A DNA stretch of 64,000 bases. Origin: Caenorhabditis remanei (taxonomy: Eukaryota; Nematoda; Chromadorea; Rhabditida; Rhabditidae). The translations under genes and the position numbers were made by a program. The notes under the pieces were generated by a model. It worked only from the letters and a program-made list of their open reading frames with translations. It was not told the DNA's origin and did no database searches. The number at the start of each line of letters is the position of its first letter. The first letter of the stretch is position 1. The stretch spans positions 1,240,001 through 1,304,000 of the forward strand of contig NC_071329.1 of assembly GCF_010183535.1 (NCBI RefSeq), given 5' to 3'. This document shows, in pieces, positions 25,797 through 43,219 of this stretch.

Positions 25797-26060
25797 AGTA
25801 GTATAATGGAGGATTTCCCCCCCACCCCCCGGGATTTTCCCCCCGAGAATTTTTTTACAGTTGTTTTTTACAGTTGTTTTTTACAGTTGTTTTTTGAATT
25901 GTGTTTTTTACAGTTGTTTTTTACAGTTGTTTTTTGAAACTGTTTTATAGCTGTTTTTTTGAAACTGTTTTTGGAACTGTTTTTTATAGCTGTTTTTTGG
26001 AACTGTTTTTTTTAGAACTGTTCCTAATGCTGTTTTTTCAAAATTATTTCAAAAATTATT
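25797..26060. repeat. Left terminus: C-tract and ACAGTTGTTTTTT repeats
   Basis: After the AGTAGTATAATGGAGGATTT end comes a run of C residues interrupted by A (25816-25843). Then TTTTTTACAGTTG-type units of about 13-16 bp repeat about ten times, degrading to GAACTGTTTTT forms by 26030. Subterminal arrays of this kind can act as transposase/integrase or replication-initiator sites; that role is inference. The mirror copy is at 42956-43219. Confidence 0.7.
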
Positions 26061-26159
26061 AAATTTTGTGTAAAAGCAGTTTTTGTCAAATTAATGTTTG
26101 TAATCCTTCTAAAACTTTGCCCAATTTTGTATGTCAAAAGAAAACAGATGCCGTGTAGT

Positions 26160-26345
26160 AAATGGGTTTACTTCAACAAACGAGTTTTACATGGAGGAGA
26201 CATGGAAATTTTGAGGAGGCCCACAGTAATGGTCACCAGTGAGTATGGCAAGAAACATTTAAAATGAAAGTTTTAAATAAAATGGGGCGGAGTTAATGTT
26301 TGATTGAAAAAGGGGCGGAGCTTATATTCTAAGGTTGGGGATAAT
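26160..26345 (-). pseudogene. Deletion fragment of the neighbouring zinc-motif gene
   Basis: 26172-26345 repeats the two ends of the gene at 26370-26786 without its middle: the 3' coding end (sense CTCGTTTGTTGAAGTAA, at about 26172-26188), the GGTCACCAGTGAG start-site region and the upstream GGGCGGAG segment. It is a partial tandem duplicate that lost most of the reading frame. The mirror copy is at about 42671-42856. Confidence 0.55.
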
Positions 26346-26369
26346 ATGATCTTGACAAACTAACACTTT

Positions 26370-26786
26370 TTACTTCAACAAACGAGTTTTACATGGAGAA
26401 CACAAAGAAATTTTGAGGAGGCCCTCTTCAACTTTGATTGTATCCTTACATTCCATACACAAGGTGATGCAGACAAATGCTCGCCCATCTCGCAATGTCA
26501 CTCCCCTCTGTTTTGGAGTTCTGGGCTTTCTAGATTTCATGGAAATCATTTGTTTTCCATTCTTCCTTTTGGTTGGTGTGGCAGGCGGAGGCGATGGAGG
26601 TAGTGGAACTGAAATTGTACATTTTTTAATGAACAAGTGTGAGGGAAACATACTTTCAGATGGTGATGGCGGTGGTGGTTCTGGTTGTGGAGATGGTGAT
26701 AAACTTGGTAGCCATCTATCGTATTGGACACTATAATATCCTCTGTTGACATTGGCAGGGCTTGGGTCGGGGAGTTGAGAATACAT
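26370..26786 (-). CDS. Small proline-rich protein with C-x15-C-x2-C motif (Z3, left arm)
   Basis: This is the mirror image of the gene at 42230-42646. The minus-strand exons are 26786-26654 and 26608-26370, separated by a 45-bp GT-AG intron, giving 123 aa. The N-terminal half is proline-rich (QPEPPPPSPSE, PLPPSPPPATP), the middle is basic (RKPRTPKQR), and the C-terminus holds CMEC, a 15-residue spacer, then CSPC. This looks like a treble-clef or ribbon-type zinc site. It is one of three neighbouring genes with the same spacing. The function is unknown; nucleic-acid binding is a guess. Confidence 0.62.
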   Translation of the reverse strand: MYSQLPDPSPANVNRGYYSVQYDRWLPSLSPSPQPEPPPPSPSESMFPSHLFIKKCTISVPLPPSPPPATPTKRKNGKQMISMKSRKPRTPKQRGVTLRDGRAFVCITLCMECKDTIKVEEGLLKISLCSPCKTRLLK

Positions 26787-26989
26787 GGTCACCAGCGAGT
26801 GTGACAAGAAACGTTTGAAATGAAAGTTTAGAAATTTGAAGGGACGGAGCCAATGTCTAATTGCTCTAGATTGCAAAAGGGCGGAGTTTAAATCCTAAGA
26901 TTGATAAATGAGTCGTTGAGCTCTTCAGTGACGTCATCGCCCGAGTGGAGTTTGATTAAGTAATGCAACTCGCAATTTTAAGGACATCA

Positions 26990-27340
26990 TTAAGAGTTGG
27001 AATTCGTGATAAATGAGTTTCGGCCGTAGCAAGATGCACACAATTTGAATGACATCATATTATCCTCAATCTTCACACTGTTCCGGCAACACTCTTCTAG
27101 GAACAAAGAAAACACGGCGCCATTCCCCATTACAACTGATGGCATAACTGAAAATTTGCCTAAACCTCTATAGTCTTTATCAGCCAACTCACTTTTTTGC
27201 CATACAAAGTCTCCGGGTACTGGGTTTTGTCCAACCCATCGATATTGGTTTTCTAAAAATTAAAAAATTTCAGCATTTTTAAATTCAAACTTACCATAGA
27301 AAAACGTAAAGTTTCGTAGTACATTGTCGGGGTACTTCAT
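26990..27340 (-). CDS. Small protein with C-x15-C-x2-C motif (Z2, left arm)
   Basis: Mirror of 41676-42026. Exons are 27340-27295 and 27252-26990 with a 42-bp intron, giving 102 aa. The C-terminal part reads EECC, then 15 residues including VKIED, then CASC, the same spacing as in Z1 and Z3. Its start codon overlaps the stop codon of Z1 in an ATGA arrangement. The family is not recognised. Confidence 0.58.
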
Positions 27341-27486
27341 GGCATATGTTTTTTTTGACAGTCTATACAAAATTGGATTGTAGCAACATCATCCTGGAGT
27401 TTGAAAGTTTTGCGGCAGCAATTACCCAAACTGAATACCATGATGCCTGGCCCGCTGAAGGGAGCTTGGAGATAAACTTCAGGCAT
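27337..27486 (-). CDS. 49-aa protein with C-x15-C-x2-C motif (Z1, left arm)
   Basis: Mirror of 41530-41679. A single exon starts MPEVYLQAPFSGPGIM and contains GNCC, 15 residues including FKLQDD, then CIDC. It is very short, but the motif shared with Z2 and Z3, including the Lys-hydrophobic-acidic triad after the first cysteines, supports it. It may instead be an alternative first exon of Z2. Confidence 0.5.
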   Translation of the reverse strand: MPEVYLQAPFSGPGIMVFSLGNCCRKTFKLQDDVATIQFCIDCQKKHMP

Positions 27487-27710
27487 GATTTTGCAGAATG
27501 ACTATAGGCGACGAGAAAGTGAGGGGCGGAGTTTTAGACACATTTCAATTGACAAATTTCATTAATTTGAAGCAAACACTCAAGCAGACCATCTTCTGTG
27601 AGATTGACAAATGCAATCTTGTTAAATGAATCTTTTCAAAAGAGTGTTAGATTTATGTTGATAGAATATCACATTCGAACAGAAAAAAGTTGAATGTCAA
27701 AGCAATCGTC

Positions 27711-27839
27711 ATGTTTAAAAGACAAGCCATCGAGTTTTTACGGGAGTGCAACAGACATTTACTATCAAATCGGACCCATACTGAGCAAGATATGTATGAA
27801 AACAATATAAAGAATTGGAATGGCACTGGAGTGTTTTGA
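27711..27839 (+). CDS. Possible 42-aa ORF, uncertain
   Basis: An open frame starting MFKRQAIEFLRECNRHLL, with charged, helix-like composition unlike the low-complexity noise around it. The frame is open further upstream, to about 27650, so it could be an exon of a larger gene. The overlapping minus-strand frame (27653-27850) is hydrophobic and looks less protein-like. The mirror copy is at 41177-41305. Confidence 0.25.
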   Translation: MFKRQAIEFLRECNRHLLSNRTHTEQDMYENNIKNWNGTGVF

Positions 27840-28268
27840 TGGCATAACAAAACTTAAGTGACGAGCAACATTTGGGGCAATAATTAATTACACAAAAACA
27901 AAGATGTACCCCCGTACGTTTACCTAGTGTAAAAAGTGTAATAGTAAAGAGCTTCTACGCGCACCGCGCAGCTTCTGCATCACTCTTTAGCCTATTCGAC
28001 AGCGTTTATAGCCGTCTCCAAAGTTTTTGATTTTTATAGAATTCGTTTTTTCAAATAATATTTCGACACTCCAGGTTAGTTTTATTGTGCTCTGAATGCA
28101 AAAGATATTGAACAAACTCAGAACATTTCAGTTTTCCCAAATTGGATACATTTGTAAATTACAAGGATATAACTTTTGGAGAGTTGATTTGGAGAGGACA
28201 CGATTTTGGTTCGAGCCGATTTGACAAATTTGGCCAAAGATAGTGTTGAAAGAAAACAACTATTCAAC

Positions 28269-28761
28269 ATGGAGAGGACTTTGATAGAGGAGGACAAGCC
28301 AAGCTCAAAAACAAACAAACGGTAGAAGCAAAAAGTTTTTGAAGCAGTGCGGACTGGCCAAGCAAAAGTGTGATGTCTGCCACGAAATCTTCTACAGCCG
28401 AGCGTGCTATGTATACACAATTCAGCCTATCCGACTCCAGAAAACCAACAAATCAATGTTTGCGGTATCAATAGTGAGTTTTTTCATAAATTTTCAGATC
28501 ACTATAACCATTTTTTCAGTTGCGAAACGTGTTGCAAGTCTGTTCTACCACAACAATCACCATGATGGGAACGGAACCGGTCATCACCTACACAATTTTT
28601 GTCTTCACCGAAAAACTGAAAATGCATACAACGTCAGGGTTCCCAGATTATGTAAGTCTTTATCAAATGTTGACTTTTAGAATTTTATTTCAATTTGAAC
28701 TTTTTGCTATTTTCAGTTTCATCATCATGATCTGATCTACACCGTCATAATAATTGCCTAA
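28269..28761 (+). pseudogene. Cysteine-containing gene with an apparent frame break (left arm)
   Basis: An upstream frame (28188-28325, first ATG 28269) ends KPSSKTNKR and a TAG. A second frame, +1 relative to it, continues from 28288 through KQKCDVCHEIFYSRACYVY. It then splices at 28474-28519 (46 bp) and 28652-28716 (65 bp) to a stop at 28759-28761. Exon 2 has VCSTTTITMMG and FVFTEKLKM. A likely 57-bp 5' intron (about 28074-28131) precedes it. Either a 1-nt indel or an unrecognised start or splice explains the break. The identical break is in the mirror copy at 40255-40747. No known family is recognised. Confidence 0.4.
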
Positions 28762-29032
28762 ATCCTCCTTTACTCAAAAAATTAATTTCATTCCAAAACT
28801 TTCTACTTTACTTATATATTTTCACTTGATAAATTATGAGTATTCAATTTGAAAAATGATTCAAATACTATGGCAACACGTCCCACCACACAGTGTAATA
28901 CTGGAATGAAGAGAGGATACATTCAGAGTTCCTGAGTGCGCATTCAAAAAAAAGACAACTTTCTCTTTTAGAATGGAGGGTTAGTGAGTAAGTGAGAATG
29001 ACAGCTATCAAGTCAAATTTCAATTGTAAATC

Positions 29033-29282
29033 TCAAAATAATTCATTCAAACCCACCAGGGAATAAGACACGGATGCAGTGGATGAATCATCAGTGATTG
29101 CTCCTTTTGGGTTTCCAATCGGCTTGAAACAAGAAAACAGTTTAATCTTTAATAAACCCTAAACTTACTGTGCCGGAACTTTCAATTTGGAAAGGACGAT
29201 TTTTAGACATTTCAAGTGGGTATGAATCGTTTTCCTTATGCATTTCAGGGTTTGGGCCAACTGACTCCTTGGTAGAAGCCAT
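29033..29282 (-). CDS. 67-aa two-exon gene S (left arm)
   Basis: Mirror of 39734-39983. Minus-strand exons are 29282-29169 and 29122-29033, with a 46-bp intron. It starts MASTKESVGPNPEMHKENDS, is rich in serine and acidic residues and ends SLVGLNELF. It sits about 100 bp downstream of a TATA box and the 99-bp repeat array, so it is probably the gene that array controls. Function unknown. Confidence 0.5.
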
Positions 29283-29378
29283 TTCTTCCTGCGGTGATGA
29301 AGAATCACTTGAATGCATTCAGGGGTAGGCTGGTGGATGAAAAGTTTGATCATATGCCTCATTCTATTTGTCTTGGCT

Positions 29379-29386
29379 CTTTTATA
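29379..29386 (-). promoter_or_regulatory. TATA box of gene S (left arm)
   Basis: TATAAAAG on the minus strand, immediately downstream of the 99-bp repeats and about 97 bp upstream of the gene S start codon. A diverged copy of the same promoter lies near the palindrome centre (34003-34010). Confidence 0.6.
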
Positions 29387-29399
29387 CGCTAGGAAAAAT

Positions 29400-29786
29400 G
29401 GGCGGCGCCTCGAGGGCCATTAATCTTATCAACGCGTGGGCGTTGGAAATGACGGCACTTTTAATCGAAATGACGTCACTTTTTGTTCGAAATAGCAGTT
29501 GGCGGAGCCGTAGAGCCATTAATCTTATCAACGCGTGGGCATTGGAAATGATGTCACTTTTCGTTAAAATGACGTCACTTTTTGTTCGAAATAGCAGTTG
29601 GCGGAGCCGTAGAGCCATTAATCTTATCAATGCGTGGGCGTTGGAAATGATGTCACTTTTCGTTGAAATGACGTCACTTTTTGTTCGAAATAGCAGTTGG
29701 CGGAGCCGTAGAGCCATTAATCTTATCAATGCGTGGGTGTTGGAAATGATGTCACTTTTCTTTGAAATGACGTCATCTTTTGAAGA
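29400..29786. repeat. 99-bp tandem repeat, 4 blocks (left arm)
   Basis: Each block contains CCATTAATCTTATCAA, TGGAAATGATGTCACTTTT and AAATGACGTCACTTTT, then TTCGAAATAGCAGTTGGCGG. It thus carries a GATA-type site (TTGATAAG on the minus strand) and a CRE-like TGACGTCA. The unit is a multiple of three with no stop on either strand, so long frames appear in both directions, but the array sits between a TATA box and the polymerase exon and is better read as regulatory. The right arm has 12 blocks. Confidence 0.8.
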
Positions 29787-31506
29787 ACTTTATATGCACA
29801 CTATGGATCGTCAAAAAGATATTGAGAGTCATGGGTATAAAGTAACGGCTATATGGGAATGTCAAATCCGTCGAGAGTTAAAGGCGAGCAAGGAAATGAG
29901 AACCTTTTTTGAACATGTGAGTTTTGTAGCTGAAAATGAGTAAAAATATTAAAATTTTAGTGTCGGCATACCCACAATCTTGTGCCTCGGGAGAGCATGT
30001 TTGGAGGTCGAACGCAACCATTTCAAGCATACGCGAAGGCGGACGAAGACCACACAATCGAATATTTGGACTATTGTAGTTTGTATCCGTGGACGAATAT
30101 GAAGGGTGCCTTCTATCCGAAAGGCCAGCCAAATGTGATTAGGAGCGATTTCGAGAAAGTAGTTCCGGGAAAACCTTTGAGCTATCGTGGCATCGTGTTT
30201 TGTGACATCTTACCGCCGCTCAATCTAGAGTTTGGAGTGCTGCCTTTTCGAGCCGGAAACAAGCTGCTCTTCCCACTGTGTAGGACATGTGCCATTCAGT
30301 CTAACGGAAAACGATGCACACACAATGAGGAGAAGCAGCGCTATTTGACTGGCAGTTGGGTGTCGGAGGAGCTGAACTTGGCCATCGAGATGGGATACAA
30401 AGTGAAGAGGATCCATGAGGTGTGGCATTGGGAGGACTCCAAGTGGTTCAAAGGCGGGTTCTTTGAGAGCTTTTTGGCCCCACTCTTGAAGCTGAAGCAT
30501 GAGGCTTCTGGGTGGCCGAGGCCGGACATGAGCGACGAAGATAAGCAGAAACACATTGATGCCATCTTTAAAAACGATGGAATAAGGATTTGTGCTGAGA
30601 ATGTGAAAAAGAACCCGGCTCTCCGTCAATTGGCAAAGCTGTTCTTGAATAGTGCCTGGGGCAAATTTGCCCAGAATCCTCAGAAGACGGAAATTAAAAT
30701 GTTCCACATTCAAGATTCTGATGGCATTTTTGCATTCTTCAACCAGGCACTTTATGAACCAACGGGATTGGTCGAGTTTGGAGCCAATCACGTCATCGTC
30801 TCTCGGGAGCCGCTCAAGGAAGGATTGGTTGGAGCCAAGTTCACCAACATTGTGTATGGCTCAATCACCACAGCAATTGCTCGACTTCGACTCTTTGAGG
30901 CAATGAGGCTTGTCGGTCAGGAGAACCTCATTTATTGCGGTAAGTTTTTTATTTCCTGAATCTTTAAAAAATGTAAATTTTCAGATACTGATTCCGTCAT
31001 CTTCAAGCAAAAAATTGGAGAGGAACCACTCAAAGAATTGAAAGGAGATGGATTGGGGATGTTGACAGATGAGATTCCCGCAGGAACAAGAATCACAGAG
31101 GTTGTAACGGTGGCCCCAAAGTGCTATGCTTTGAAAATGGAAAGTGAGAATGGCAAGGTCAGCTACACTATAAAGTCCAAAGGAATGACCCTGAATTGTG
31201 CAACAATGGAGCATGTCTCTTTTGAGAAAATGAAAAAGATGGTGAGCTTTTATAATTCTTTCAAAATCAAAATTTTTAACTTTACAGATGGAGGATTATG
31301 TGGCAGGTGTGGAAGTTACACCGCTCTGCGGAACAAAGATGTCGATGAAGAGGCCGGCAAAGCGTCCGTTGGGCGAAATCACATCATCAATTTTGACAAA
31401 GAGGATGCGCCCCGTCACCGACAAGGGAGTCTTGGCTGATGAATGGACTCTTCCCTACGGCTGTCTGGATTGCGACACACAATTGGTGGAAAATTATCCA
31501 CATTAA
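29767..31506 (+). CDS. Protein-primed family B DNA polymerase, C-terminal part (left arm)
   Basis: Exons are 29767(?)-29916, 29961-30939, 30985-31241 and 31288-31506, with introns of 44-46 bp that keep phase. In order there are: GYKVTAIWEC and SMFGGRTQPF (typical of protein-primed polymerases just before motif A); motif A DYCSLYP; motif B KLFLNSAWGKFAQNP; motif C YCDTDS, created across the intron at 30940-30984; PKCYALKM with KSKGM; and a TLPYG end. Both catalytic aspartate motifs are intact. The N-terminal 3'-5' exonuclease domain and TPR-type upstream region of Maverick polymerases (usually around 1000 aa or more) are missing. The upstream frame runs into the 99-bp array, so the true start is uncertain. 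Confidence 0.8.
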
Positions 31507-33013
31507 AATGTGTTTGAATTGTGTTTATATTGTGAGTGAATATTGTACAGGTTTTTTACGTGTTTTTATTGAAAATGTTTTATAAATTCAAGTGTAATAT
31601 CGAGCTTTCTGGTACCCAGCTGGCCGAAGACACAGTGTAATCTTCCCATCGAACCAAGCATTCCCGCACACCTCTATGCACAGCACATCAATTCAATTTG
31701 TTCCACCAGTGTGATATGTGCACTTTGCCTGCTCTCTAGTGTAAATTCTACCCTAATCCTTATCACTATTTGTATCGACAACGTTATACAACACTGAGCG
31801 CCCGGGCAGCAATTTACTAACGCGAGAATCTCCCTTGCTCATAGCCTTGATCAAAAAACGCCTTTCGAAGCCAAACGCATATGATTTCCAACTCTGAACT
31901 AGTCATTTCACGATATTTTGATACACCTATAAAAATTTCATTCTATTTTCATGCGATGCGTGGTCACCCGTTGTAGAATGTTTTCTTCAAACATGATATG
32001 TTTTTTCAACCTTTTGTCACACACTTTATGAAAGCGACATATATTTTTCGCAAACACCCTAGATATTTTATCAATTTTGCACGTATTCTAAGTGTTTCAG
32101 TGTGTTGTTATGTCTTTGAAGAGAACATGTAGCTTCAACATCAGGGCAACGTTTCTTTTTTTACGCACCTAACGATATTTACAGTGATGCACACACTTTT
32201 TCGACAACGCATTCACATTTCCGTCACCAACCAATTAATATTTTCGCTTAATGAAAAAGAAGATTGATGATACGAGCACACATTTTTTGCACCCATGACC
32301 GTTTTTCGAGGAAAATTTCTAGTGTTTTTCACCAATTTCTTGGTTGAGACGTATGAGGCTTTATTTTTTATCGATATCCAATATTATTCGCTACAGTTTT
32401 TGTACATACGCATCTTTTTTTGAGCGGTAGTGTGCGCGGTGTACTATTTTTTATGGAGATATATAAGTCTGTCCAATAGTAGGTGCACCTTTGCTTACGA
32501 TTTTTTGATGGCAGGGTTATCTTCATCAAATTAGTTCGTTTGTCTGAGCATTGTTTTTCAAATAAATTGCGCTACATCTCTAAAAGTATGTGTGCTCCCT
32601 TTAAAATTTAATACCGCTCTGAGAAAAATGGGCTCAAACTAGTAAAACTTTCGTTTTTCACTCAAAGTTATGAATTGTGCACATTTTGATTTGGTTTGTT
32701 TTCGAATTGTGAACAATTTATTCAATTGTGTTTACAAAAAATATCGAGCAATTCATTTATTTTAACAAAGGTTGCCGTGATTAGCATTCATACAGATAGA
32801 TTTTGCAGAAGACTCGTATAGACGGATGGCTCTATGATAGTTAGGAATGATGTATAGTAGCTGTATTCAGAAGAAACATGTATATAGAAAGTTATGGTTA
32901 TTTTGAGTCGGGGGCCTAGGTATTTTTTGCAAAAAAAAGAACTATGGGTATGTCTTGTTCTTCAAAGCAACTTTCTCATATAGAAATCTTGGACTACAAA
33001 TCCTTGCTCACAG
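31507..33013. other. Non-coding stretch of the left arm
   Basis: About 1.5 kb with no convincing frame. Immediately after the polymerase stop the sequence (GAGCTTTCTGGTACCCAGCTGG) resembles 33234-33256 downstream of the polymerase relic, showing an old internal duplication. The mirror copy is at 35211-36717. Confidence 0.5.
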
Positions 33014-33136
33014 GCGTTTATTGAACAAATCATCAATTATGTGACTGGTGTTGACATCACTTCACTGTATGGAACTCCTGGCACCCATACTGGCAAAAAG
33101 GATGTCAAAAAACTAGTGGAAAATCTACTTTCTTAA
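33014..33136 (+). pseudogene. Relic of a polymerase 3' exon
   Basis: After an acceptor-like CACAG, 40 codons read AFIEQIINYVTGVDITSLYG and stop at 33134-33136. YVTGVDITSLYGT aligns with YVAGVEVTPLCGT at the start of the last polymerase exon (31288 onward), and the downstream DNA is also alike. It is a decayed, diverged second copy of the polymerase 3' end. The mirror copy is at 35088-35210. Confidence 0.5.
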
Positions 33137-34002
33137 CTCTAAGTAGATTGTGTCTATCTTGTGTTTACATCGTTTGAGTTTTACTTTTGTTATATTGTTA
33201 ATAAAAAAATTGTTTCAGGCTAGTGTAAAATTGGGCTTTTTGGAATCCAGCTGTTTGCGGACTCTGTATATCTGCCTCCATCCAAATAGACACTCTTGCA
33301 CTCCTCGGCGTTTCCTCTCTGAAATCACTGATCATTGCGTGGGTGCATGATGAAAAATTATGTCACTTCTAGTAGTTCATCTTTAACATGTCGATGAAAG
33401 AAAGGTCGTAATCTGGTATTGGTACCTGAAGCGATGTCACCTGTGCCAAGAATCAGAGTGCCAAAAAAAATAAAATGGTGTAATGTATTGGGTCGGAAGT
33501 TGCCGCAGGTCCCTTTGATATCAGAGAGGGGACATATGCCGTTTCCACAAATGACGTCATGTTTTCGATTGACAGCTGTTGACAAGCCCCTTCGACATCA
33601 GAGAAGCGAAATTTATCAAATCGCAGTGTGCCGTGAATTAAAATGACGTCACTTTTCGTGAAATGCGATCAGTCCAAAGCCAATAGGACAATCAGTAGGC
33701 TCATTAATCTTATCAGTGCTTTGGTGTTTGATGAAAATGATGTCATGGGTGGTACATTAGGACTACTAATCTTATCAATGCATCCGCAATGTCCGCATCA
33801 CTGCACATGATCTTTTTACAAGAGTCTCTCTCAGTGTATACAGATGTCTGAAAATCGTCAAAAAACAGTCAAAAATATGAGCTCAAAATGTCACATTTCA
33901 CACCGAACTGTCTATTTGTGTATCCAGATATTTCATCTGCCCTAGTTGATATCTGTGTGTACGAGGTTAGTGATCATATACTTCATTCAATTTGCCATGT
34001 CT
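33137..34002. other. Diverged repeat of the arm's own promoter region
   Basis: No intact gene. The block carries several TGACGTCA or TGATGTCA and CTTATCA sites (about 33553, 33643, 33706, 33738) like the 99-bp array, but more diverged. Frames at 33150-33350 and 33358-33646 have no recognisable features and are mirrored in the right arm. The mirror of the block is 34222-35087. Confidence 0.45.
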
Positions 34003-34010
34003 CTTTTATA
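34003..34010 (-). promoter_or_regulatory. TATA box left of the palindrome centre
   Basis: Minus-strand TATAAAAG followed by AGACATGGCAAATTGAATGA, closely matching the gene S promoter (TATAAAAG, then AGCCAAGACAAATAGAATGA). It points outward from the centre. No open gene follows it. Confidence 0.5.
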
Positions 34011-34054
34011 TGCTGAGAAAAAAGGGTGGAGTCATAGGACCATCAATCTTATCA

Positions 34055-34168
34055 ATGCGTGGGCGTTGGAAATGACGTCACTTTAATCAAAGTGACGTCA
34101 TTTTAATCAAATTTTAATCAAAATGACGTCACTTTGATTAAAGTGACGTCATTTCCAACGCCCACGCA
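34055..34168. repeat. Palindrome axis in clustered TGACGTCA sites
   Basis: The two arms meet at about 34112. The centre is AGTGACGTCATTTTAATCAA followed, after a few unpaired bases, by its near reverse complement. TGACGTCA stands at 34072-34079, 34093-34100, 34124-34131 and 34145-34152. Only about 2-4 bases around 34105-34119 fail to pair, so there is virtually no spacer. Confidence 0.85.
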
Positions 34169-34221: not shown

Positions 34222-36717
34222 AGACATGGCAAATTGAATGAAGTATATGATCACTAACCTCGTACACACAGATATCAACTAGGGCAGATGAAATATCTGG
34301 ATACACAAATAGACAGTTCGGTGTGAAATGTGACATTTTGAGCTCATATTTTTGACTGTTTTTTGACGATTTTCAGACATCTGTATACACTGAGAGAGAC
34401 TCTTGTAAAAAGATCATGTGCAGTGATGCGGACATTGCGGATGCATTGATAAGATTAGTAGTCCTAATGTACCACCCATGACATCATTTTCATCAAACAC
34501 CAAAGCACTGATAAGATTAATGAGCCTACTGATTGTCCTATTGGCTTTGGACTGATCGCATTTCACGAAAAGTGACGTCATTTTAATTCACGGCACACTG
34601 CGATTTGATAAATTTCGCTTCTCTGATGTCGAAGGGGCTTGTCAACAGCTGTCAATCGAAAACATGACGTCATTTGTGGAAACGGCATATGTCCCCTCTC
34701 TGATATCAAAGGGACCTGCGGCAACTTCCGACCCAATACATTACACCATTTTATTTTTTTTGGCACTCTGATTCTTGGCACAGGTGACATCGCTTCAGGT
34801 ACCAATACCAGATTACGACCTTTCTTTCATCGACATGTTAAAGATGAACTACTAGAAGTGACATAATTTTTCATCATGCACCCACGCAATGATCAGTGAT
34901 TTCAGAGAGGAAACGCCGAGGAGTGCAAGAGTGTCTATTTGGATGGAGGCAGATATACAGAGTCCGCAAACAGCTGGATTCCAAAAAGCCCAATTTTACA
35001 CTAGCCTGAAACAATTTTTTTATTAACAATATAACAAAAGTAAAACTCAAACGATGTAAACACAAGATAGACACAATCTACTTAGAGTTAAGAAAGTAGA
35101 TTTTCCACTAGTTTTTTGACATCCTTTTTGCCAGTATGGGTGCCAGGAGTTCCATACAGTGAAGTGATGTCAACACCAGTCACATAATTGATGATTTGTT
35201 CAATAAACGCCTGTGAGCAAGGATTTGTAGTCCAAGATTTCTATATGAGAAAGTTGCTTTGAAGAACAAGACATACCCATAGTTCTTTTTTTTGCAAAAA
35301 ATACCTAGGCCCCCGACTCAAAATAACCATAACTTTCTATATACATGTTTCTTCTGAATACAGCTACTATACATCATTCCTAACTATCATAGAGCCATCC
35401 GTCTATACGAGTCTTCTGCAAAATCTATCTGTATGAATGCTAATCACGGCAACCTTTGTTAAAATAAATGAATTGCTCGATATTTTTTGTAAACACAATT
35501 GAATAAATTGTTCACAATTCGAAAACAAACCAAATCAAAATGTGCACAATTCATAACTTTGAGTGAAAAACGAAAGTTTTACTAGTTTGAGCCCATTTTT
35601 CTCAGAGCGGTATTAAATTTTAAAGGGAGCACACATACTTTTAGAGATGTAGCGCAATTTATTTGAAAAACAATGCTCAGACAAACGAACTAATTTGATG
35701 AAGATAACCCTGCCATCAAAAAATCGTAAGCAAAGGTGCACCTACTATTGGACAGACTTATATATCTCCATAAAAAATAGTACACCGCGCACACTACCGC
35801 TCAAAAAAAGATGCGTATGTACAAAAACTGTAGCGAATAATATTGGATATCGATAAAAAATAAAGCCTCATACGTCTCAACCAAGAAATTGGTGAAAAAC
35901 ACTAGAAATTTTCCTCGAAAAACGGTCATGGGTGCAAAAAATGTGTGCTCGTATCATCAATCTTCTTTTTCATTAAGCGAAAATATTAATTGGTTGGTGA
36001 CGGAAATGTGAATGCGTTGTCGAAAAAGTGTGTGCATCACTGTAAATATCGTTAGGTGCGTAAAAAAAGAAACGTTGCCCTGATGTTGAAGCTACATGTT
36101 CTCTTCAAAGACATAACAACACACTGAAACACTTAGAATACGTGCAAAATTGATAAAATATCTAGGGTGTTTGCGAAAAATATATGTCGCTTTCATAAAG
36201 TGTGTGACAAAAGGTTGAAAAAACATATCATGTTTGAAGAAAACATTCTACAACGGGTGACCACGCATCGCATGAAAATAGAATGAAATTTTTATAGGTG
36301 TATCAAAATATCGTGAAATGACTAGTTCAGAGTTGGAAATCATATGCGTTTGGCTTCGAAAGGCGTTTTTTGATCAAGGCTATGAGCAAGGGAGATTCTC
36401 GCGTTAGTAAATTGCTGCCCGGGCGCTCAGTGTTGTATAACGTTGTCGATACAAATAGTGATAAGGATTAGGGTAGAATTTACACTAGAGAGCAGGCAAA
36501 GTGCACATATCACACTGGTGGAACAAATTGAATTGATGTGCTGTGCATAGAGGTGTGCGGGAATGCTTGGTTCGATGGGAAGATTACACTGTGTCTTCGG
36601 CCAGCTGGGTACCAGAAAGCTCGATATTACACTTGAATTTATAAAACATTTTCAATAAAAACACGTAAAAAACCTGTACAATATTCACTCACAATATAAA
36701 CACAATTCAAACACATT
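34222..36717. other. Right-arm mirror of 31507-34002
   Basis: Exact reverse complement of the left-arm non-coding block, including the polymerase relic at 35088-35210 (minus). No additional genes. Confidence 0.7.
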
Positions 36718-38457
36718 TTAATGTGGATAATTTTCCACCAATTGTGTGTCGCAATCCAGACAGCCGTAGGGAAGAGTCCATTCATCAGCCAAGACTCCCT
36801 TGTCGGTGACGGGGCGCATCCTCTTTGTCAAAATTGATGATGTGATTTCGCCCAACGGACGCTTTGCCGGCCTCTTCATCGACATCTTTGTTCCGCAGAG
36901 CGGTGTAACTTCCACACCTGCCACATAATCCTCCATCTGTAAAGTTAAAAATTTTGATTTTGAAAGAATTATAAAAGCTCACCATCTTTTTCATTTTCTC
37001 AAAAGAGACATGCTCCATTGTTGCACAATTCAGGGTCATTCCTTTGGACTTTATAGTGTAGCTGACCTTGCCATTCTCACTTTCCATTTTCAAAGCATAG
37101 CACTTTGGGGCCACCGTTACAACCTCTGTGATTCTTGTTCCTGCGGGAATCTCATCTGTCAACATCCCCAATCCATCTCCTTTCAATTCTTTGAGTGGTT
37201 CCTCTCCAATTTTTTGCTTGAAGATGACGGAATCAGTATCTGAAAATTTACATTTTTTAAAGATTCAGGAAATAAAAAACTTACCGCAATAAATGAGGTT
37301 CTCCTGACCGACAAGCCTCATTGCCTCAAAGAGTCGAAGTCGAGCAATTGCTGTGGTGATTGAGCCATACACAATGTTGGTGAACTTGGCTCCAACCAAT
37401 CCTTCCTTGAGCGGCTCCCGAGAGACGATGACGTGATTGGCTCCAAACTCGACCAATCCCGTTGGTTCATAAAGTGCCTGGTTGAAGAATGCAAAAATGC
37501 CATCAGAATCTTGAATGTGGAACATTTTAATTTCCGTCTTCTGAGGATTCTGGGCAAATTTGCCCCAGGCACTATTCAAGAACAGCTTTGCCAATTGACG
37601 GAGAGCCGGGTTCTTTTTCACATTCTCAGCACAAATCCTTATTCCATCGTTTTTAAAGATGGCATCAATGTGTTTCTGCTTATCTTCGTCGCTCATGTCC
37701 GGCCTCGGCCACCCAGAAGCCTCATGCTTCAGCTTCAAGAGTGGGGCCAAAAAGCTCTCAAAGAACCCGCCTTTGAACCACTTGGAGTCCTCCCAATGCC
37801 ACACCTCATGGATCCTCTTCACTTTGTATCCCATCTCGATGGCCAAGTTCAGCTCCTCCGACACCCAACTGCCAGTCAAATAGCGCTGCTTCTCCTCATT
37901 GTGTGTGCATCGTTTTCCGTTAGACTGAATGGCACATGTCCTACACAGTGGGAAGAGCAGCTTGTTTCCGGCTCGAAAAGGCAGCACTCCAAACTCTAGA
38001 TTGAGCGGCGGTAAGATGTCACAAAACACGATGCCACGATAGCTCAAAGGTTTTCCCGGAACTACTTTCTCGAAATCGCTCCTAATCACATTTGGCTGGC
38101 CTTTCGGATAGAAGGCACCCTTCATATTCGTCCACGGATACAAACTACAATAGTCCAAATATTCGATTGTGTGGTCTTCGTCCGCCTTCGCGTATGCTTG
38201 AAATGGTTGCGTTCGACCTCCAAACATGCTCTCCCGAGGCACAAGATTGTGGGTATGCCGACACTAAAATTTTAATATTTTTACTCATTTTCAGCTACAA
38301 AACTCACATGTTCAAAAAAGGTTCTCATTTCCTTGCTCGCCTTTAACTCTCGACGGATTTGACATTCCCATATAGCCGTTACTTTATACCCATGACTCTC
38401 AATATCTTTTTGACGATCCATAGTGTGCATATAAAGTTCTTCAAAAGATGACGTCAT
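36718..38457 (-). CDS. Protein-primed family B DNA polymerase, C-terminal part (right arm)
   Basis: Reverse-complement twin of 29767-31506. Minus-strand exons are 38457(?)-38308, 38263-37285, 37239-36983 and 36936-36718. Motifs A, B and C and the TLPYG end are all unchanged relative to the left copy. Both copies read toward the centre of the element, so the two genes converge. As on the left, the upstream in-frame sequence is the 99-bp array, here long enough to open a 455-codon frame of 33-residue repeats; I do not count those repeats as part of the enzyme. Confidence 0.8.
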
Positions 38458-39616
38458 TTCAAAGAAAAGTGACATCATTTCCAACACCCACGCATTGATA
38501 AGATTAATGGCTCTACGGCTCCGCCAACTGCTATTTCGAACAAAAAGTGACGTCATTTCAACGAAAAGTGACATCATTTCCAACGCCCACGCATTGATAA
38601 GATTAATGGCTCTACGGCTCCGCCAACTGCTATTTCGAACAAAAAGTGACGTCATTTTAACGAAAAGTGACATCATTTCCAATGCCCACGCGTTGATAAG
38701 ATTAATGGCTCTACGGCTCCGCCAACTGCTATTTCGAACAAAAAGTGACGTCATTTTAACGAAAAGTGACATCATTTCCAATGCCCACGCGTTGATAAGA
38801 TTAATGGCTCTACGGCTCCGCCAACTGCTATTTCGAACAAAAAGTGACGTCATTTTAACGAAAAGTGACATCATTTCCAACGCCCACGCATTGATAAGAT
38901 TAATGGCTCTACGGCTCCGCCAACTGCTATTTCGAACAAAAAGTGACGTCATTTTAACGAAAAGTGACATCATTTCCAACGCCCACGCATTGATAAGATT
39001 AATGGCTCTACGGCTCCGCCAACTGCTATTTCGAACAAAAAGTGACGTCATTTTAACGAAAAGTGACATCATTTCCAATGCCCACGCGTTGATAAGATTA
39101 ATGGCTCTACGGCTCCGCCAACTGCTATTTCGAACAAAAAGTGACGTCATTTTAACGAAAAGTGACATCATTTCCAATGCCCACGCATTGATAAGATTAA
39201 TGGCTCTACGGCTCCGCCAACTGCTATTTCGAACAAAAAGTGACGTCATTTCAAAGAAAAGTGACATCATTTCCAACGCCCACGCATTGATAAGATTAAT
39301 GGCTCTACGGCTCCGCCAACTGCTATTTCGAACAAAAAGTGACGTCATTTTAACGAAAAGTGACATCATTTCCAACGCCCACGCATTGATAAGATTAATG
39401 GCTCTACGGCTCCGCCAACTGCTATTTCGAACAAAAAGTGACGTCATTTTAACGAAAAGTGACATCATTTCCAATGCCCACGCGTTGATAAGATTAATGG
39501 CTCTACGGCTCCGCCAACTGCTATTTCGAACAAAAAGTGACGTCATTTCGATTAAAAGTGCCGTCATTTCCAACGCCCACGCGTTGATAAGATTAATGGC
39601 CCTCGAGGCGCCGCCC
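38440..39616. repeat. 99-bp tandem repeat, 12 blocks (right arm)
   Basis: Same unit as 29400-29786, expanded by exactly eight units (792 bp). Reading rightward, each block is GATAAGATTAATGGCTCTAC, GGCTCCGCCAACTGC, TTCGAACAAAAAGTGACGTC, AAAAGTGACATCATTTCCAA. Single-base variants (GCGTTGAT or GCATTGAT, TTTTAACG or TTTCAAAG) are shared among blocks in patterns that suggest multi-unit duplication. The array ends 14 bp before a TATA box. Confidence 0.88.
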
Positions 39617-39629
39617 ATTTTTCCTAGCG

Positions 39630-39637
39630 TATAAAAG
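39630..39637 (+). promoter_or_regulatory. TATA box of gene S (right arm)
   Basis: TATAAAAG just downstream of the 12-block array and 97 bp upstream of the gene S start codon. This makes the array a plausible upstream activating region. Confidence 0.62.
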
Positions 39638-39733
39638 AGCCAAGACAAATAGAATGAGGCATATGATCAAACTTTTCATCCACCAGCCTACCCCTGAATG
39701 CATTCAAGTGATTCTTCATCACCGCAGGAAGAA

Positions 39734-39983
39734 ATGGCTTCTACCAAGGAGTCAGTTGGCCCAAACCCTGAAATGCATAAGGAAAACGATTCATACCCAC
39801 TTGAAATGTCTAAAAATCGTCCTTTCCAAATTGAAAGTTCCGGCACAGTAAGTTTAGGGTTTATTAAAGATTAAACTGTTTTCTTGTTTCAAGCCGATTG
39901 GAAACCCAAAAGGAGCAATCACTGATGATTCATCCACTGCATCCGTGTCTTATTCCCTGGTGGGTTTGAATGAATTATTTTGA
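39734..39983 (+). CDS. 67-aa two-exon gene S (right arm)
   Basis: Exons 39734-39847 and 39894-39983 flank a 46-bp intron (GTAAGT ... TTTCAAG), giving 67 aa. The start ATG has the context GAAGAAATGG. The product is acidic and serine-rich, with no cysteines and no hydrophobic segment. Another ATG frame (39654-39851) crosses the same DNA, but it is basic, overlaps the donor site and gives no spliced continuation, so I prefer this frame. Neighbours are the 99-bp array and TATA box upstream and the frame-broken cysteine gene downstream, on the opposite strand. Not recognised. Confidence 0.52.
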
Positions 39984-40254
39984 GATTTACAATTGAAATT
40001 TGACTTGATAGCTGTCATTCTCACTTACTCACTAACCCTCCATTCTAAAAGAGAAAGTTGTCTTTTTTTTGAATGCGCACTCAGGAACTCTGAATGTATC
40101 CTCTCTTCATTCCAGTATTACACTGTGTGGTGGGACGTGTTGCCATAGTATTTGAATCATTTTTCAAATTGAATACTCATAATTTATCAAGTGAAAATAT
40201 ATAAGTAAAGTAGAAAGTTTTGGAATGAAATTAATTTTTTGAGTAAAGGAGGAT

Positions 40255-40747
40255 TTAGGCAATTATTATGACGGTGTAGATCAGATCATGATGATGAAAC
40301 TGAAAATAGCAAAAAGTTCAAATTGAAATAAAATTCTAAAAGTCAACATTTGATAAAGACTTACATAATCTGGGAACCCTGACGTTGTATGCATTTTCAG
40401 TTTTTCGGTGAAGACAAAAATTGTGTAGGTGATGACCGGTTCCGTTCCCATCATGGTGATTGTTGTGGTAGAACAGACTTGCAACACGTTTCGCAACTGA
40501 AAAAATGGTTATAGTGATCTGAAAATTTATGAAAAAACTCACTATTGATACCGCAAACATTGATTTGTTGGTTTTCTGGAGTCGGATAGGCTGAATTGTG
40601 TATACATAGCACGCTCGGCTGTAGAAGATTTCGTGGCAGACATCACACTTTTGCTTGGCCAGTCCGCACTGCTTCAAAAACTTTTTGCTTCTACCGTTTG
40701 TTTGTTTTTGAGCTTGGCTTGTCCTCCTCTATCAAAGTCCTCTCCAT
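40255..40747 (-). pseudogene. Cysteine-containing gene with a frame break (right arm)
   Basis: Mirror of 28269-28761 with the same apparent frame break and splice sites. Because the break is identical in both arms, it predates the inverted duplication or was homogenised between arms. Confidence 0.4.
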
Positions 40748-41176
40748 GTTGAATAGTTGTTTTCTTTCAACACTATCTTTGGCCAAATTTGTCAAATCGG
40801 CTCGAACCAAAATCGTGTCCTCTCCAAATCAACTCTCCAAAAGTTATATCCTTGTAATTTACAAATGTATCCAATTTGGGAAAACTGAAATGTTCTGAGT
40901 TTGTTCAATATCTTTTGCATTCAGAGCACAATAAAACTAACCTGGAGTGTCGAAATATTATTTGAAAAAACGAATTCTATAAAAATCAAAAACTTTGGAG
41001 ACGGCTATAAACGCTGTCGAATAGGCTAAAGAGTGATGCAGAAGCTGCGCGGTGCGCGTAGAAGCTCTTTACTATTACACTTTTTACACTAGGTAAACGT
41101 ACGGGGGTACATCTTTGTTTTTGTGTAATTAATTATTGCCCCAAATGTTGCTCGTCACTTAAGTTTTGTTATGCCA

Positions 41177-41305
41177 TCAAAACACTCCAGTGCCATTCCA
41201 ATTCTTTATATTGTTTTCATACATATCTTGCTCAGTATGGGTCCGATTTGATAGTAAATGTCTGTTGCACTCCCGTAAAAACTCGATGGCTTGTCTTTTA
41301 AACAT
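41177..41305 (-). CDS. Possible 42-aa ORF (right arm), uncertain
   Basis: Mirror of 27711-27839. No further evidence. Confidence 0.22.
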   Translation of the reverse strand: MFKRQAIEFLRECNRHLLSNRTHTEQDMYENNIKNWNGTGVF

Positions 41306-41529
41306 GACGATTGCTTTGACATTCAACTTTTTTCTGTTCGAATGTGATATTCTATCAACATAAATCTAACACTCTTTTGAAAAGATTCATTTAACAAGAT
41401 TGCATTTGTCAATCTCACAGAAGATGGTCTGCTTGAGTGTTTGCTTCAAATTAATGAAATTTGTCAATTGAAATGTGTCTAAAACTCCGCCCCTCACTTT
41501 CTCGTCGCCTATAGTCATTCTGCAAAATC

Positions 41530-41679
41530 ATGCCTGAAGTTTATCTCCAAGCTCCCTTCAGCGGGCCAGGCATCATGGTATTCAGTTTGGGTAATTGCTG
41601 CCGCAAAACTTTCAAACTCCAGGATGATGTTGCTACAATCCAATTTTGTATAGACTGTCAAAAAAAACATATGCCATGA
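41530..41679 (+). CDS. 49-aa protein with C-x15-C-x2-C motif (Z1, right arm)
   Basis: Mirror twin of 27337-27486. GNCC and CIDC are separated by 15 residues. The TGA stop overlaps the ATG of Z2 (ATGA at 41676-41679). In a eukaryotic host such overlap would need reinitiation, leaky scanning or a separate transcript. Confidence 0.5.
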   Translation: MPEVYLQAPFSGPGIMVFSLGNCCRKTFKLQDDVATIQFCIDCQKKHMP

Positions 41680-42026
41680 AGTACCCCGACAATGTACTAC
41701 GAAACTTTACGTTTTTCTATGGTAAGTTTGAATTTAAAAATGCTGAAATTTTTTAATTTTTAGAAAACCAATATCGATGGGTTGGACAAAACCCAGTACC
41801 CGGAGACTTTGTATGGCAAAAAAGTGAGTTGGCTGATAAAGACTATAGAGGTTTAGGCAAATTTTCAGTTATGCCATCAGTTGTAATGGGGAATGGCGCC
41901 GTGTTTTCTTTGTTCCTAGAAGAGTGTTGCCGGAACAGTGTGAAGATTGAGGATAATATGATGTCATTCAAATTGTGTGCATCTTGCTACGGCCGAAACT
42001 CATTTATCACGAATTCCAACTCTTAA
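41676..42026 (+). CDS. Small protein with C-x15-C-x2-C motif (Z2, right arm)
   Basis: Exons 41676-41721 and 41764-42026 with a 42-bp GT-AG intron give 102 aa. The middle has RWVGQNPVPGDFVWQK; the C-terminal motif is EECC-x15-CASC. It is the twin of 26990-27340. The spacing identity with Z1 and Z3 argues for tandem duplication of one ancestral gene followed by strong divergence outside the motif. Confidence 0.58.
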
Positions 42027-42229
42027 TGATGTCCTTAAAATTGCGAGTTGCATTACTTAATCAAACTCCACTCGGGCGATGACGTCACTGAAGAGCTCAA
42101 CGACTCATTTATCAATCTTAGGATTTAAACTCCGCCCTTTTGCAATCTAGAGCAATTAGACATTGGCTCCGTCCCTTCAAATTTCTAAACTTTCATTTCA
42201 AACGTTTCTTGTCACACTCGCTGGTGACC

Positions 42230-42646
42230 ATGTATTCTCAACTCCCCGACCCAAGCCCTGCCAATGTCAACAGAGGATATTATAGTGTCCAATACGATAG
42301 ATGGCTACCAAGTTTATCACCATCTCCACAACCAGAACCACCACCGCCATCACCATCTGAAAGTATGTTTCCCTCACACTTGTTCATTAAAAAATGTACA
42401 ATTTCAGTTCCACTACCTCCATCGCCTCCGCCTGCCACACCAACCAAAAGGAAGAATGGAAAACAAATGATTTCCATGAAATCTAGAAAGCCCAGAACTC
42501 CAAAACAGAGGGGAGTGACATTGCGAGATGGGCGAGCATTTGTCTGCATCACCTTGTGTATGGAATGTAAGGATACAATCAAAGTTGAAGAGGGCCTCCT
42601 CAAAATTTCTTTGTGTTCTCCATGTAAAACTCGTTTGTTGAAGTAA
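42230..42646 (+). CDS. Small proline-rich protein with C-x15-C-x2-C motif (Z3, right arm)
   Basis: Exons 42230-42362 and 42408-42646 with a 45-bp intron give 123 aa. The start MYSQLPDPSPANVNRGYY follows ACTCGCTGGTGACC. An open frame extends 30 codons upstream, but that part runs through non-coding repeat and is rejected. The proline-rich N-terminus, basic centre and CMEC-x15-CSPC end are as in the left arm. A deletion duplicate of this gene follows at 42671-42856. Confidence 0.62.
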   Translation: MYSQLPDPSPANVNRGYYSVQYDRWLPSLSPSPQPEPPPPSPSESMFPSHLFIKKCTISVPLPPSPPPATPTKRKNGKQMISMKSRKPRTPKQRGVTLRDGRAFVCITLCMECKDTIKVEEGLLKISLCSPCKTRLLK

Positions 42647-42670
42647 AAAGTGTTAGTTTGTCAAGATCAT

Positions 42671-42856
42671 ATTATCCCCAACCTTAGAATATAAGCTCCG
42701 CCCCTTTTTCAATCAAACATTAACTCCGCCCCATTTTATTTAAAACTTTCATTTTAAATGTTTCTTGCCATACTCACTGGTGACCATTACTGTGGGCCTC
42801 CTCAAAATTTCCATGTCTCCTCCATGTAAAACTCGTTTGTTGAAGTAAACCCATTT
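42671..42856 (+). pseudogene. Deletion fragment of Z3 (right arm)
   Basis: Mirror of 26160-26345. The promoter-side segment and the last codons of Z3 are joined, with the middle missing. Confidence 0.55.
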
Positions 42857-42955
42857 ACTACACGGCATCTGTTTTCTTTTGACATACAAAATTGGGCAAA
42901 GTTTTAGAAGGATTACAAACATTAATTTGACAAAAACTGCTTTTACACAAAATTT

Positions 42956-43219
42956 AATAATTTTTGAAATAATTTTGAAAAAACAGCATTAGGAACAGTT
43001 CTAAAAAAAACAGTTCCAAAAAACAGCTATAAAAAACAGTTCCAAAAACAGTTTCAAAAAAACAGCTATAAAACAGTTTCAAAAAACAACTGTAAAAAAC
43101 AACTGTAAAAAACACAATTCAAAAAACAACTGTAAAAAACAACTGTAAAAAACAACTGTAAAAAAATTCTCGGGGGGAAAATCCCGGGGGGTGGGGGGGA
43201 AATCCTCCATTATACTACT
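42956..43219. repeat. Right terminus: AAAAAACAACTGT repeats and G-tract
   Basis: Mirror of 25797-26060. AACAACTGTAAAA units precede CCCGGGGGGTGGGGGG and the terminal CCTCCATTATACTACT. Confidence 0.7.

What the first reader, a model, noticed from the sequence alone, without database searches (positions are those of the whole stretch)
25797..43219. A 17.4-kb Maverick-like element that is one giant palindrome
Mavericks known to me are linear 15-20 kb elements with terminal inverted repeats of at most about 1 kb. Here both ends, the target duplication and the polymerase are Maverick-like, but the inverted repeat covers the whole element. Every gene is present twice in mirror image, and the unique sequence is only about 8.3 kb. 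This could be an isomer produced by protein-primed replication, a non-autonomous derivative, or a new lineage whose mobile form is a snap-back molecule.
Basis: partly seen in the sequence, partly recalled or inferred. Interest (0 to 1): 0.95.

Follow-up and report, generated by a model that had tools for sequence, protein, structure and literature searches.

The report
Palindromic polymerase-only Maverick transposons
A 17.4-kb virus-like jumping element in a roundworm chromosome is one giant mirror image; at least 18 other mirror-image elements of the same kind lie in the same genome, and they likely arise when a Maverick's DNA copying folds back on itself and then likely travel with an integrase borrowed from ordinary Mavericks.

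Summary
25797-43219 is a palindrome. Outside a 99-bp minisatellite (3.7 vs 11.7 units, an exact 8-unit difference) the arms differ at 2 of 7,949 positions, both within 7 nt of the axis. It inserted as one unit: a 6-bp target duplication (CAGTTA) flanks it, and a tandem paralogue in the window keeps the empty site with one CAGTTA. Its nearest relative (C2:4.84-4.86 Mb) shares its termini, has a 6-bp duplication, and is an ordinary Maverick: one polymerase, an integrase, a capsid protein. Genome-wide, 19 loci carry polymerase pieces in exact mirror image; none has a capsid or integrase match within 20 kb, whereas 30 of 69 non-mirrored polymerase loci have one within 16 kb. Four palindromes follow four different ordinary Mavericks through the polymerase and stop near the integrase 3' end. 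One palindrome sits at three sites with identical spacings. Nine palindromes share an axis and differ by 5-17% in larger segments, yet the two arms of each stay (nearly) identical. I read this as a recurrent class of palindromic, capsid-less Maverick derivatives, likely formed by fold-back during protein-primed replication and moved by a borrowed integrase. The window's copy is itself defective: it lacks the exonuclease domain.

The parts
25791..25796 (.). target-site duplication, left copy (CAGTTA)
43220..43225 (.). target-site duplication, right copy (CAGTTA)
25797..34111 (+). left arm of the palindrome (8,315 bp)
34113..43219 (-). right arm of the palindrome (9,107 bp; longer by 8 x 99 bp)
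25797..25859 (+). 63-nt terminus identical to the left terminus of the ordinary Maverick at C2:4838559 (48 nt identical to its right terminus); mirrored at 43157-43219
28209..28544 (+). decayed fragments of the polymerase N-terminal part; mirrored at about 40472-40807
29416..29781 (+). 99-bp minisatellite, 3.7 units
38443..39600 (-). 99-bp minisatellite, 11.7 units (mirror of 29416-29781)
29961..31439 (+). family B DNA polymerase palm region in two open stretches (29961-30959, 30960-31439) separated by a probable short intron; exonuclease domain absent
36785..38263 (-). mirror copy of the polymerase palm region
31589..31898 (-). remnant of the integrase 3' end (residues 299-410 of the 410-aa integrase of the ordinary relative, in three pieces); mirrored at 36326-36635
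31901..34111 (+). inner spacer; in the ordinary relative only its minisatellite-related end has a match; short stretches match the inner arm of another palindrome family; mirrored at 34113-36323
34066..34158 (.). axis: quasi-palindromic TGACGTCA-bearing repeats related to the 99-bp unit; 15-nt loop in the predicted hairpin
52992..64000 (+). tandem paralogue of the insertion locus with an empty site at 58783-58788 (one CAGTTA)

Best explanation
The 17,423-bp element at 25797-43219 is a palindromic derivative of a Maverick (Polinton) that carries a polymerase fragment twice and neither a capsid nor a complete integrase gene, was inserted as one unit with a 6-bp target duplication, and likely arose by fold-back (snap-back) synthesis during protein-primed replication of the polymerase-side half of an ordinary Maverick. 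Shown: the palindrome, the precise insertion with an empty paralogous site, the ordinary relative with matching termini, and 18 further mirror-image loci without capsid or integrase matches. Inferred: a growing or displaced strand folds back on a hairpin-prone repeat inside the element and primes its own copying back to the end, giving a giant hairpin that is duplicated into a linear palindrome with the same terminus at both ends. Inferred: an integrase from an ordinary Maverick, which recognises the same termini, inserts it. Inferred: because each half can template the other, the arms are made identical again in each cycle. This element lacks the exonuclease domain and is probably a dead-end or fully dependent member of the class.
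For: Palindrome and axis. Target duplication and empty site: the left flank 20000-25796 matches 52992-58788 (34 mismatches in 5,797), the right flank 43220-48438 matches 58783-64000 (11 mismatches and 3 gaps in 5,220), and 300+300 bp of joined flanks with one CAGTTA align over 600 of 600 bp without gaps (7 mismatches). Ordinary relative C2:4838559-4857462: target duplication TTCGAG, first 63 nt identical; integrase with chromodomain (over the Pfam cut-off) and rve (under it) and DNA_pol_B_2 polymerase; [quoted passage not shown] Mirror census: 17 of 65 clusters from all 150 rows; 18 of 87 loci after adding all 136 rows of the exonuclease search; one more axis, 19 in all, from the Pfam search. 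None of the 104 integrase and 84 capsid rows lies within 20 kb of any of the 19 axes, while 30 of the 69 non-mirrored loci have one within 16 kb. All 18 polymerase/exonuclease axes face inward and none outward. Independent origins and a common breakpoint region: palindromes C2:5.48, C2:16.89, C4:3.92 and the window follow four different ordinary elements at 98.5, 97.2, 94.2 and 89.8% identity and stop 37 bp inside, 56 bp short of, 100 bp inside and 337 bp inside the integrase 3' end. Mobility as a palindrome: C2:1.16, C4:5.19 and C4:23.73 have equal spacings at three sites. Arm identity against copy divergence: 7 mismatches in 18,550 bp over five held arm pairs of other palindromes, while copies of the family sharing one axis region differ by 5-17% in their larger segments.
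Against: No replication intermediate was seen. Arm identity could also come from gene conversion inside the chromosome. The axis sequence is in hand only for the window's element. Three loci of the large family (C2:14.88, C4:20.27, C79) show one arm only. Two palindromes have slightly unequal arms: C122 (242.8 vs 238.7 bits) and C3:4.63 (4607 vs 4574 bits). A short inverted polymerase pair at C3:5.19 Mb, not counted among the 19, has arms only 98.6% alike over 655 bp and unequal matches (479.5 vs 332.9 bits). No sequencing reads were available.
Confidence: 0.62

Rival explanations
1. Head-to-head joining: two truncated linear Maverick molecules were ligated or recombined at their broken inner ends, and the product was then integrated.
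For: The inner spacers of the palindromes compared are mostly unrelated to one another and to the ordinary elements, as if other DNA had been captured; the 790-bp spacer piece of C4:3.92 was found nowhere else in the genome.
Against: In the window the spacer itself is mirrored to within a 15-nt predicted loop. Two independently broken ends would rarely stop at the same base. For the 16 axes with both palm and exonuclease pairs, the two give the same coordinate sum.
Confidence: 0.17
2. Chromosomal origin and upkeep: the palindrome formed or was homogenised in the chromosome by inverted duplication and arm-to-arm gene conversion, without a hairpin mobile form.
For: Adjacent perfect inverted repeats can be kept identical by gene conversion (general knowledge), and arm identity is very high in the five other held pairs.
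Against: A target duplication flanks the whole palindrome and an empty site exists, so it arrived as a palindrome. One palindrome with equal spacings lies at three chromosomal sites. The 8-unit array difference shows that conversion has not erased everything. This explains arm upkeep better than origin.
Confidence: 0.13
3. Assembly artefact: chimeric palindromic reads or wrong paths through repeats produced the mirror structures.
For: No reads could be inspected. The assembly also holds an odd contig (C40) with ordinary Mavericks mirrored about 86 kb apart.
Against: Both flanks carry the same 6-bp duplication and an empty paralogue exists. The arms differ by an exact 8-unit array difference. 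The same axis region recurs in nine copies that differ by 5-17% in larger segments. The polymerase mirror pairs are confined to polymerase-side halves: 0 of 19 have a capsid or integrase match within 20 kb.
Confidence: 0.05
4. Nested or back-to-back insertion of two separate elements in opposite orientation.
For: Ordinary Mavericks are common here, so close insertions are possible.
Against: No terminal sequence lies at the axis: the exact terminal 16-mer occurs only at the two outer ends of this element and of its ordinary relative. The arms differ at 2 of 7,949 aligned positions.
Confidence: 0.02

Closest known systems
Maverick/Polinton transposons, here the ordinary element at C2:4838559-4857462
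   Same: Termini AGTAGT/ACTACT, 6-bp target duplication, family B polymerase of the DNA_pol_B_2 type, 17.4 against 18.9 kb, polymerase reading inward from one end.
   Different: Palindromic throughout; polymerase (palm) present twice; no capsid gene, no complete integrase gene and no match to three further ORFs of the relative; the polymerase-side half is present twice.
Palindromic defective genomes of other protein-primed replicons (symmetric adenovirus defective DNA; palindromic derivatives of yeast pGKL linear plasmids): recalled, not found stated in the papers searched (listings, and passages of two papers)
   Same: One parental end present twice around an axis, a by-product expected of fold-back synthesis on a linear protein-capped template.
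   Different: Those, as recalled, are extrachromosomal; these are integrated, recur in several lineages and in part have multiplied as families.
Foldback or palindromic non-autonomous DNA transposons (recalled)
   Same: Long inverted arms, no complete transposase of their own.
   Different: The arms hold a replicative polymerase; termini and target duplication are of Maverick type; arms of about 8-10 kb.

Membership tests
Maverick/Polinton | 6-bp target-site duplication | tested here: met
   CAGTTA on both sides and one copy at the empty site; 6-bp duplications are part of what PMC8097293 calls intact elements (passages seen)
Maverick/Polinton | terminal inverted repeats with (AGT)2//(ACT)2-type ends | tested here: met
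   AGTAGT...ACTACT; end motif reported for vertebrate Mavericks in the passage of PMC8097293 seen
[quoted passage not shown]
   palm region present (PF03175), with dN/dS 0.07 against the ordinary relative; exonuclease domain absent (no row at this locus); priming not testable
Maverick/Polinton | retroviral-type integrase | tested here: not met
   only a 3' remnant at 31589-31898; no row of the 104 integrase matches within 20 kb of the axis
Maverick/Polinton | major capsid protein | tested here: not met
   no match of the relative's capsid protein in the arm and none of 84 rows within 20 kb of the axis
Maverick/Polinton | protease and other morphogenesis proteins | tested here: inconclusive
   the relative's 328-aa, 635-aa and 387-aa ORFs have no match in the arm, but their protease and minor-capsid labels are my reading and no family model confirmed them (the 387-aa ORF was not scanned). 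The packaging ATPase was not tested.
Fold-back (snap-back) defective genome of a protein-primed replicon | one parental end present twice around an axis, collinear with the parent up to a breakpoint | tested here: met
   for three other palindromes from their exonuclease/palm region inward, and for the window in two blocks (25849-29171 and 29779-31900); the ends of the other three were not read
Fold-back (snap-back) defective genome of a protein-primed replicon | hairpin-prone sequence at the axis | tested here: met
   for the window only; other axes were not read
Fold-back (snap-back) defective genome of a protein-primed replicon | hairpin or palindromic linear molecule seen outside the chromosome | not testable with these tools
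   needs DNA from worms

The most novel reading that the evidence does not exclude
C. remanei carries a self-perpetuating class of palindromic, polymerase-only Mavericks. They multiply as snap-back DNA, make their arms identical in every replication cycle, and use the integrase (and perhaps the capsids) of ordinary Mavericks, as integrated counterparts of defective interfering genomes. They have arisen repeatedly from different Maverick lineages, and at least one has become a lasting family with its own accessory genes in mirror image.
Probability: 0.5. Interest if true: 0.88.

Novelty: new variant of a known kind. Interest (0 to 1): 0.8.

Why it matters
How Mavericks replicate is, to my knowledge, inferred almost wholly from their polymerase. 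Palindromes that keep one end and the polymerase and lose the rest are what protein-primed strand displacement with fold-back would be expected to leave behind, so they make that replication mode testable from genome sequence. They also suggest that virus-like transposons have satellites that keep a polymerase but borrow integration. They show, too, that palindromes of about 17 kb or more can be inserted and kept in an animal chromosome.

Tried and rejected
Nested insertions: rejected, since no terminal sequence lies at the axis. A plain assembly artefact: rejected by the empty site, the array difference and the recurrence of one axis region in diverged copies. A search for relatives in viral contigs with a 15-row polymerase alignment gave 26 pattern matches and no confirmed relative, so nothing is known here about palindromes outside this genome. 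RNA families: no match in the window. Searches for published palindromic Mavericks/Polintons (20 of 56, 20 of 111, 12 of 23, 15 of 41, 12 of 69 and 15 of 82 papers listed; titles and starts of abstracts seen) listed nothing that describes them. The paper that I recall on nematode Polinton polymerases (msad274) is not held and was not seen, so prior description cannot be excluded. Palindromic adenovirus and pGKL forms are recalled; searches listed no paper stating them, and passages of PMC9415595 and PMC6831550 did not either. The terminal 16-mer with up to 2 mismatches gave 59 places against 75 for the reversed control; only the four exact ones are meaningful.

Results that weaken the reading: three one-armed loci of the large family; unequal arms at C122 and C3:4.63; a decayed inverted pair at C3:5.19; the window element's polymerase is truncated, so it is no evidence for a working palindrome; mirror pairs of other genes also exist (integrase C92, C174, C114; capsid fragments at C6:3.69 Mb; and a looser capsid pair on C76), so mirror structures are not wholly confined to polymerase halves.
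Full report
WHAT IS THERE. The arms run 25797-34111 and 34113-43219 around base 34112. Outside a 99-bp minisatellite, 7,949 positions of the two arms were compared and 2 differ, both within 7 nt of the axis. The minisatellite has 3.7 units on the left and 11.7 on the right; the 792-bp difference is exactly 8 units. The central sequence consists of TGACGTCA-bearing quasi-palindromes related to the 99-bp unit, and 301 nt around the axis fold as single-stranded DNA into one long hairpin with a 15-nt loop.

IT CAME IN AS ONE PIECE. CAGTTA stands on both sides. The window also holds a tandem segmental duplicate of the insertion locus without the element: 20000-25796 matches 52992-58788 at 99.4% and 43220-48438 matches 58783-64000 at 99.7%, with a single CAGTTA at 58783-58788. 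Flanks joined in a script (300+300 bp, one CAGTTA) align to 58489-59088 over 600 of 600 bp without a gap. The flank duplicates differ by 45 mismatches in 11,017 positions (0.41%). If the arms were as old as that duplication and evolved freely, about 32 differences would be expected in 7,949 bp; 2 are seen. Either the insertion is younger than the duplication or the arms are kept alike. If the duplicate were an uncollapsed second haplotype, the insertion would be polymorphic; the empty-site argument is the same.

THE ORDINARY RELATIVE. The exact terminal 16-mer occurs at four places in the 130.5-Mb assembly: both ends of this element and both ends of C2:4838559-4857462. That element begins with the same 63 nt at its left end and 48 nt at its right end, is flanked by TTCGAG on both sides, and carries one polymerase (DNA_pol_B_2 matches for the exonuclease and palm parts), an integrase (rve 28.1 bits, under the Pfam cut-off of 32.6; chromodomain 30.1 bits, over its cut-off of 25.1) and a 510-aa ORF. 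Public homologues of that ORF (31 proteins, 88 to 23% identical in the listing; 24 aligned) give a model of one of them, P0003, with mean pLDDT 82.8. [quoted passage not shown] Protease and minor-capsid labels for two further ORFs are my own reading. Its two ends share inverted homology in interrupted pieces reaching about 3.3 kb into the left end and about 3.7 kb into the right end, the outer 600 bp at 88%.

WHAT THE WINDOW ELEMENT KEEPS. Its outer 3.3 kb resembles the left end of the relative (91.7%). From 29779 to 31900 it follows the relative at 89.8% through the polymerase palm and into the 3' part of the integrase, where it stops 337 bp inside that gene; a remnant of the integrase C-terminus remains at 31589-31898. 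The exonuclease domain is missing (no row at this locus; only positions 210-403 of the Pfam profile), and decayed N-terminal fragments lie at 28209-28544. The capsid ORF and the 328-aa, 635-aa and 387-aa ORFs of the relative have no match in the arm. The palm compared with the relative has dN 0.019 and dS 0.258 over 330 codons, dN/dS 0.07, so it was constrained for most of the separation; this does not show that it has been constrained since the palindrome formed. The spacer 31901-34111 matches the relative only at its minisatellite-related end near the axis.

A GENOME-WIDE CLASS. A search with the palm gave 150 rows; in 65 clusters built from all of them, 17 hold inward mirror pairs (scores within 4.5 bits, lengths within 3). 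With all 136 rows of the exonuclease search added (and 88 palm rows that stand for the same 65 clusters), 87 loci resulted: 18 mirrored and 69 not. Against all 104 integrase and 84 capsid rows, 30 of the 69 have a row within 16 kb and none of the 18 (an earlier count with part of the rows gave 18 of 53 and 0 of 18). The Pfam search (131 rows) added one more axis at C2:19.21 Mb, making 19; the 44 rows re-checked were chosen because they looked paired, so that call confirms axes and is not a census. None of the 104 integrase and 84 capsid rows lies within 20 kb of any of the 19 axes. As a control for mirror pairs as such, integrase rows gave one inward and three outward pairs and capsid rows one inward and one outward (71 of 104 and 68 of 84 rows used); polymerase/exonuclease rows (88 and 69 rows) gave 18 inward and none outward. 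The searches themselves score only their best candidates, so counts are lower bounds.

REPEATED ORIGINS AND ONE KIND OF BREAKPOINT. In 17 loci polymerase and integrase converge with matches 601-1,113 bp apart. Palindrome C2:5.48 follows C4:1.95 at 98.5% and stops 37 bp inside the integrase; C2:16.89 follows C4:19.31 at 97.2% and stops 56 bp before the integrase 3' end; C4:3.92 follows C5:18.92 at 94.2% and stops 100 bp inside; the window follows C2:4.85. These comparisons cover the held stretches (about 3.7-4.0 kb around the palm), not the outer ends. The ordinary elements belong to different polymerase lineages: the palms at C5:18.92, C4:19.31 and C4:1.95 are 52 to 59% identical to the window's palm, the C2:4.85 one 96%. 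So the palindromes most likely arose at least four times, each keeping the polymerase side. C5:16.14, whose exonuclease and palm parts lie in open stretches, and the C1:15.15/C4:1.88/C122 group are further lineages whose ordinary parents I did not find.

PALINDROMES THAT MULTIPLIED. Nine loci share one axis region: both arms match the same query up to its inner end, leaving 435-549 bp between them. C2:1.16, C4:5.19 and C4:23.73 have equal spacings in all matched polymerase features and nearly all others. Copies differ from the C1:2.72 query by 5-8% over the inner 1.45 kb and by 9-17% in outer segments of 550 bp or more (C3:4.63 by 8% overall; shorter, repeat-rich segments by up to 28%; the one-armed C4:20.27 by 25% over 1.07 kb), while the two arms of each copy give equal bit scores, except C3:4.63 with 4607 vs 4574. 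A 174-aa accessory protein is mirrored around 11 axes and a distant paralogue 7-8 kb further out around 12, to within 1 bp of the polymerase axis, plus one more locus, C108, mirrored for the paralogue alone. The nine palindromes therefore span at least 18.7-19.7 kb, and the C1:15.15 and C4:1.88 ones at least 16 kb. The accessory protein has two database clusters, both C. remanei, and a 44% partial match in an ordinary element on C43. Three loci of this family show one arm only (C2:14.88, C4:20.27, C79).

ARM IDENTITY. Five further arm pairs in hand have 0/3,118, 1/3,984, 2/3,984, 2/3,765 and 2/3,699 mismatches. Together with 5-17% divergence between copies, this means the arms evolve in concert or are remade identical when the element moves. 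A small decayed pair at C3:5.19 Mb (98.6% over 655 bp) shows that arms can drift apart.

HOW IT LIKELY WORKS. A linear, protein-capped Maverick is thought to replicate by strand displacement from its ends (expected for this polymerase class; recalled). A strand that folds back on an internal hairpin-prone repeat copies itself back to the end where it started; resolving that hairpin gives a palindrome with the same end twice. Selection or chance keeps those that retain the polymerase. Ordinary Mavericks supply integrase, which fits the identical termini and the 6-bp duplication. These steps are inferred. Arm-to-arm gene conversion in the chromosome remains a serious alternative for arm upkeep but does not explain the presence of one palindrome at several sites.

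RELATION TO KNOWN KINDS. It is a Maverick derivative by termini, target duplication and polymerase; it fails the tests for integrase and capsid genes, so it is not an autonomous Maverick. It looks like a fold-back defective genome of a protein-primed replicon that has become an integrated, in part multiplying element. Six literature searches listed no description of palindromic Mavericks; most subscription papers are not held.

Noticed in passing
window 15362-64000: The insertion lies in a tandemly duplicated region: the sequence right of the insertion (43220 on) recurs 15.56 kb further on at 99.7%, and the left flank at 99.4%, with many smaller, more diverged repeats; it could be a recent segmental duplication or an uncollapsed haplotype.
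   Followed up: partly
G000 contig C40, about 56-146 kb: Two ordinary Mavericks face each other about 86 kb apart with 2 mismatches in 3,990 bp and equal coordinate sums for polymerase and integrase (not for the capsid gene): a large inverted duplication or a contig-level artefact.
   Followed up: no
window 29350-29943 and 38281-39666: The 99-bp minisatellite (33 codons) stays open in the reading frame just upstream of the polymerase palm, in both the 4-unit and the 12-unit array, and is also open on the other strand.
   Followed up: no
G000 C174:10602-16174, C92:12480-18052: Distant integrase genes (28% identity) stand in outward mirror pairs with equal 4.7-kb spacing on two contigs; possibly palindromes of another Maverick family.
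   Followed up: no
G000 C6:3693488-3708070: Cluster of capsid-gene fragments in both orientations.
   Followed up: no
G000 C2:14877782-14887143, C4:20267145-20276502, C79: Single arms of the large palindrome family without a detected mirror partner; truncated palindromes, assembly gaps or an unseen ordinary form.
   Followed up: no
L050:1766-2290 and mirror loci: Accessory 174-aa protein family with only C. remanei matches in the protein search, carried in mirror image by the palindromes and distantly by an ordinary element on C43.
   Followed up: partly
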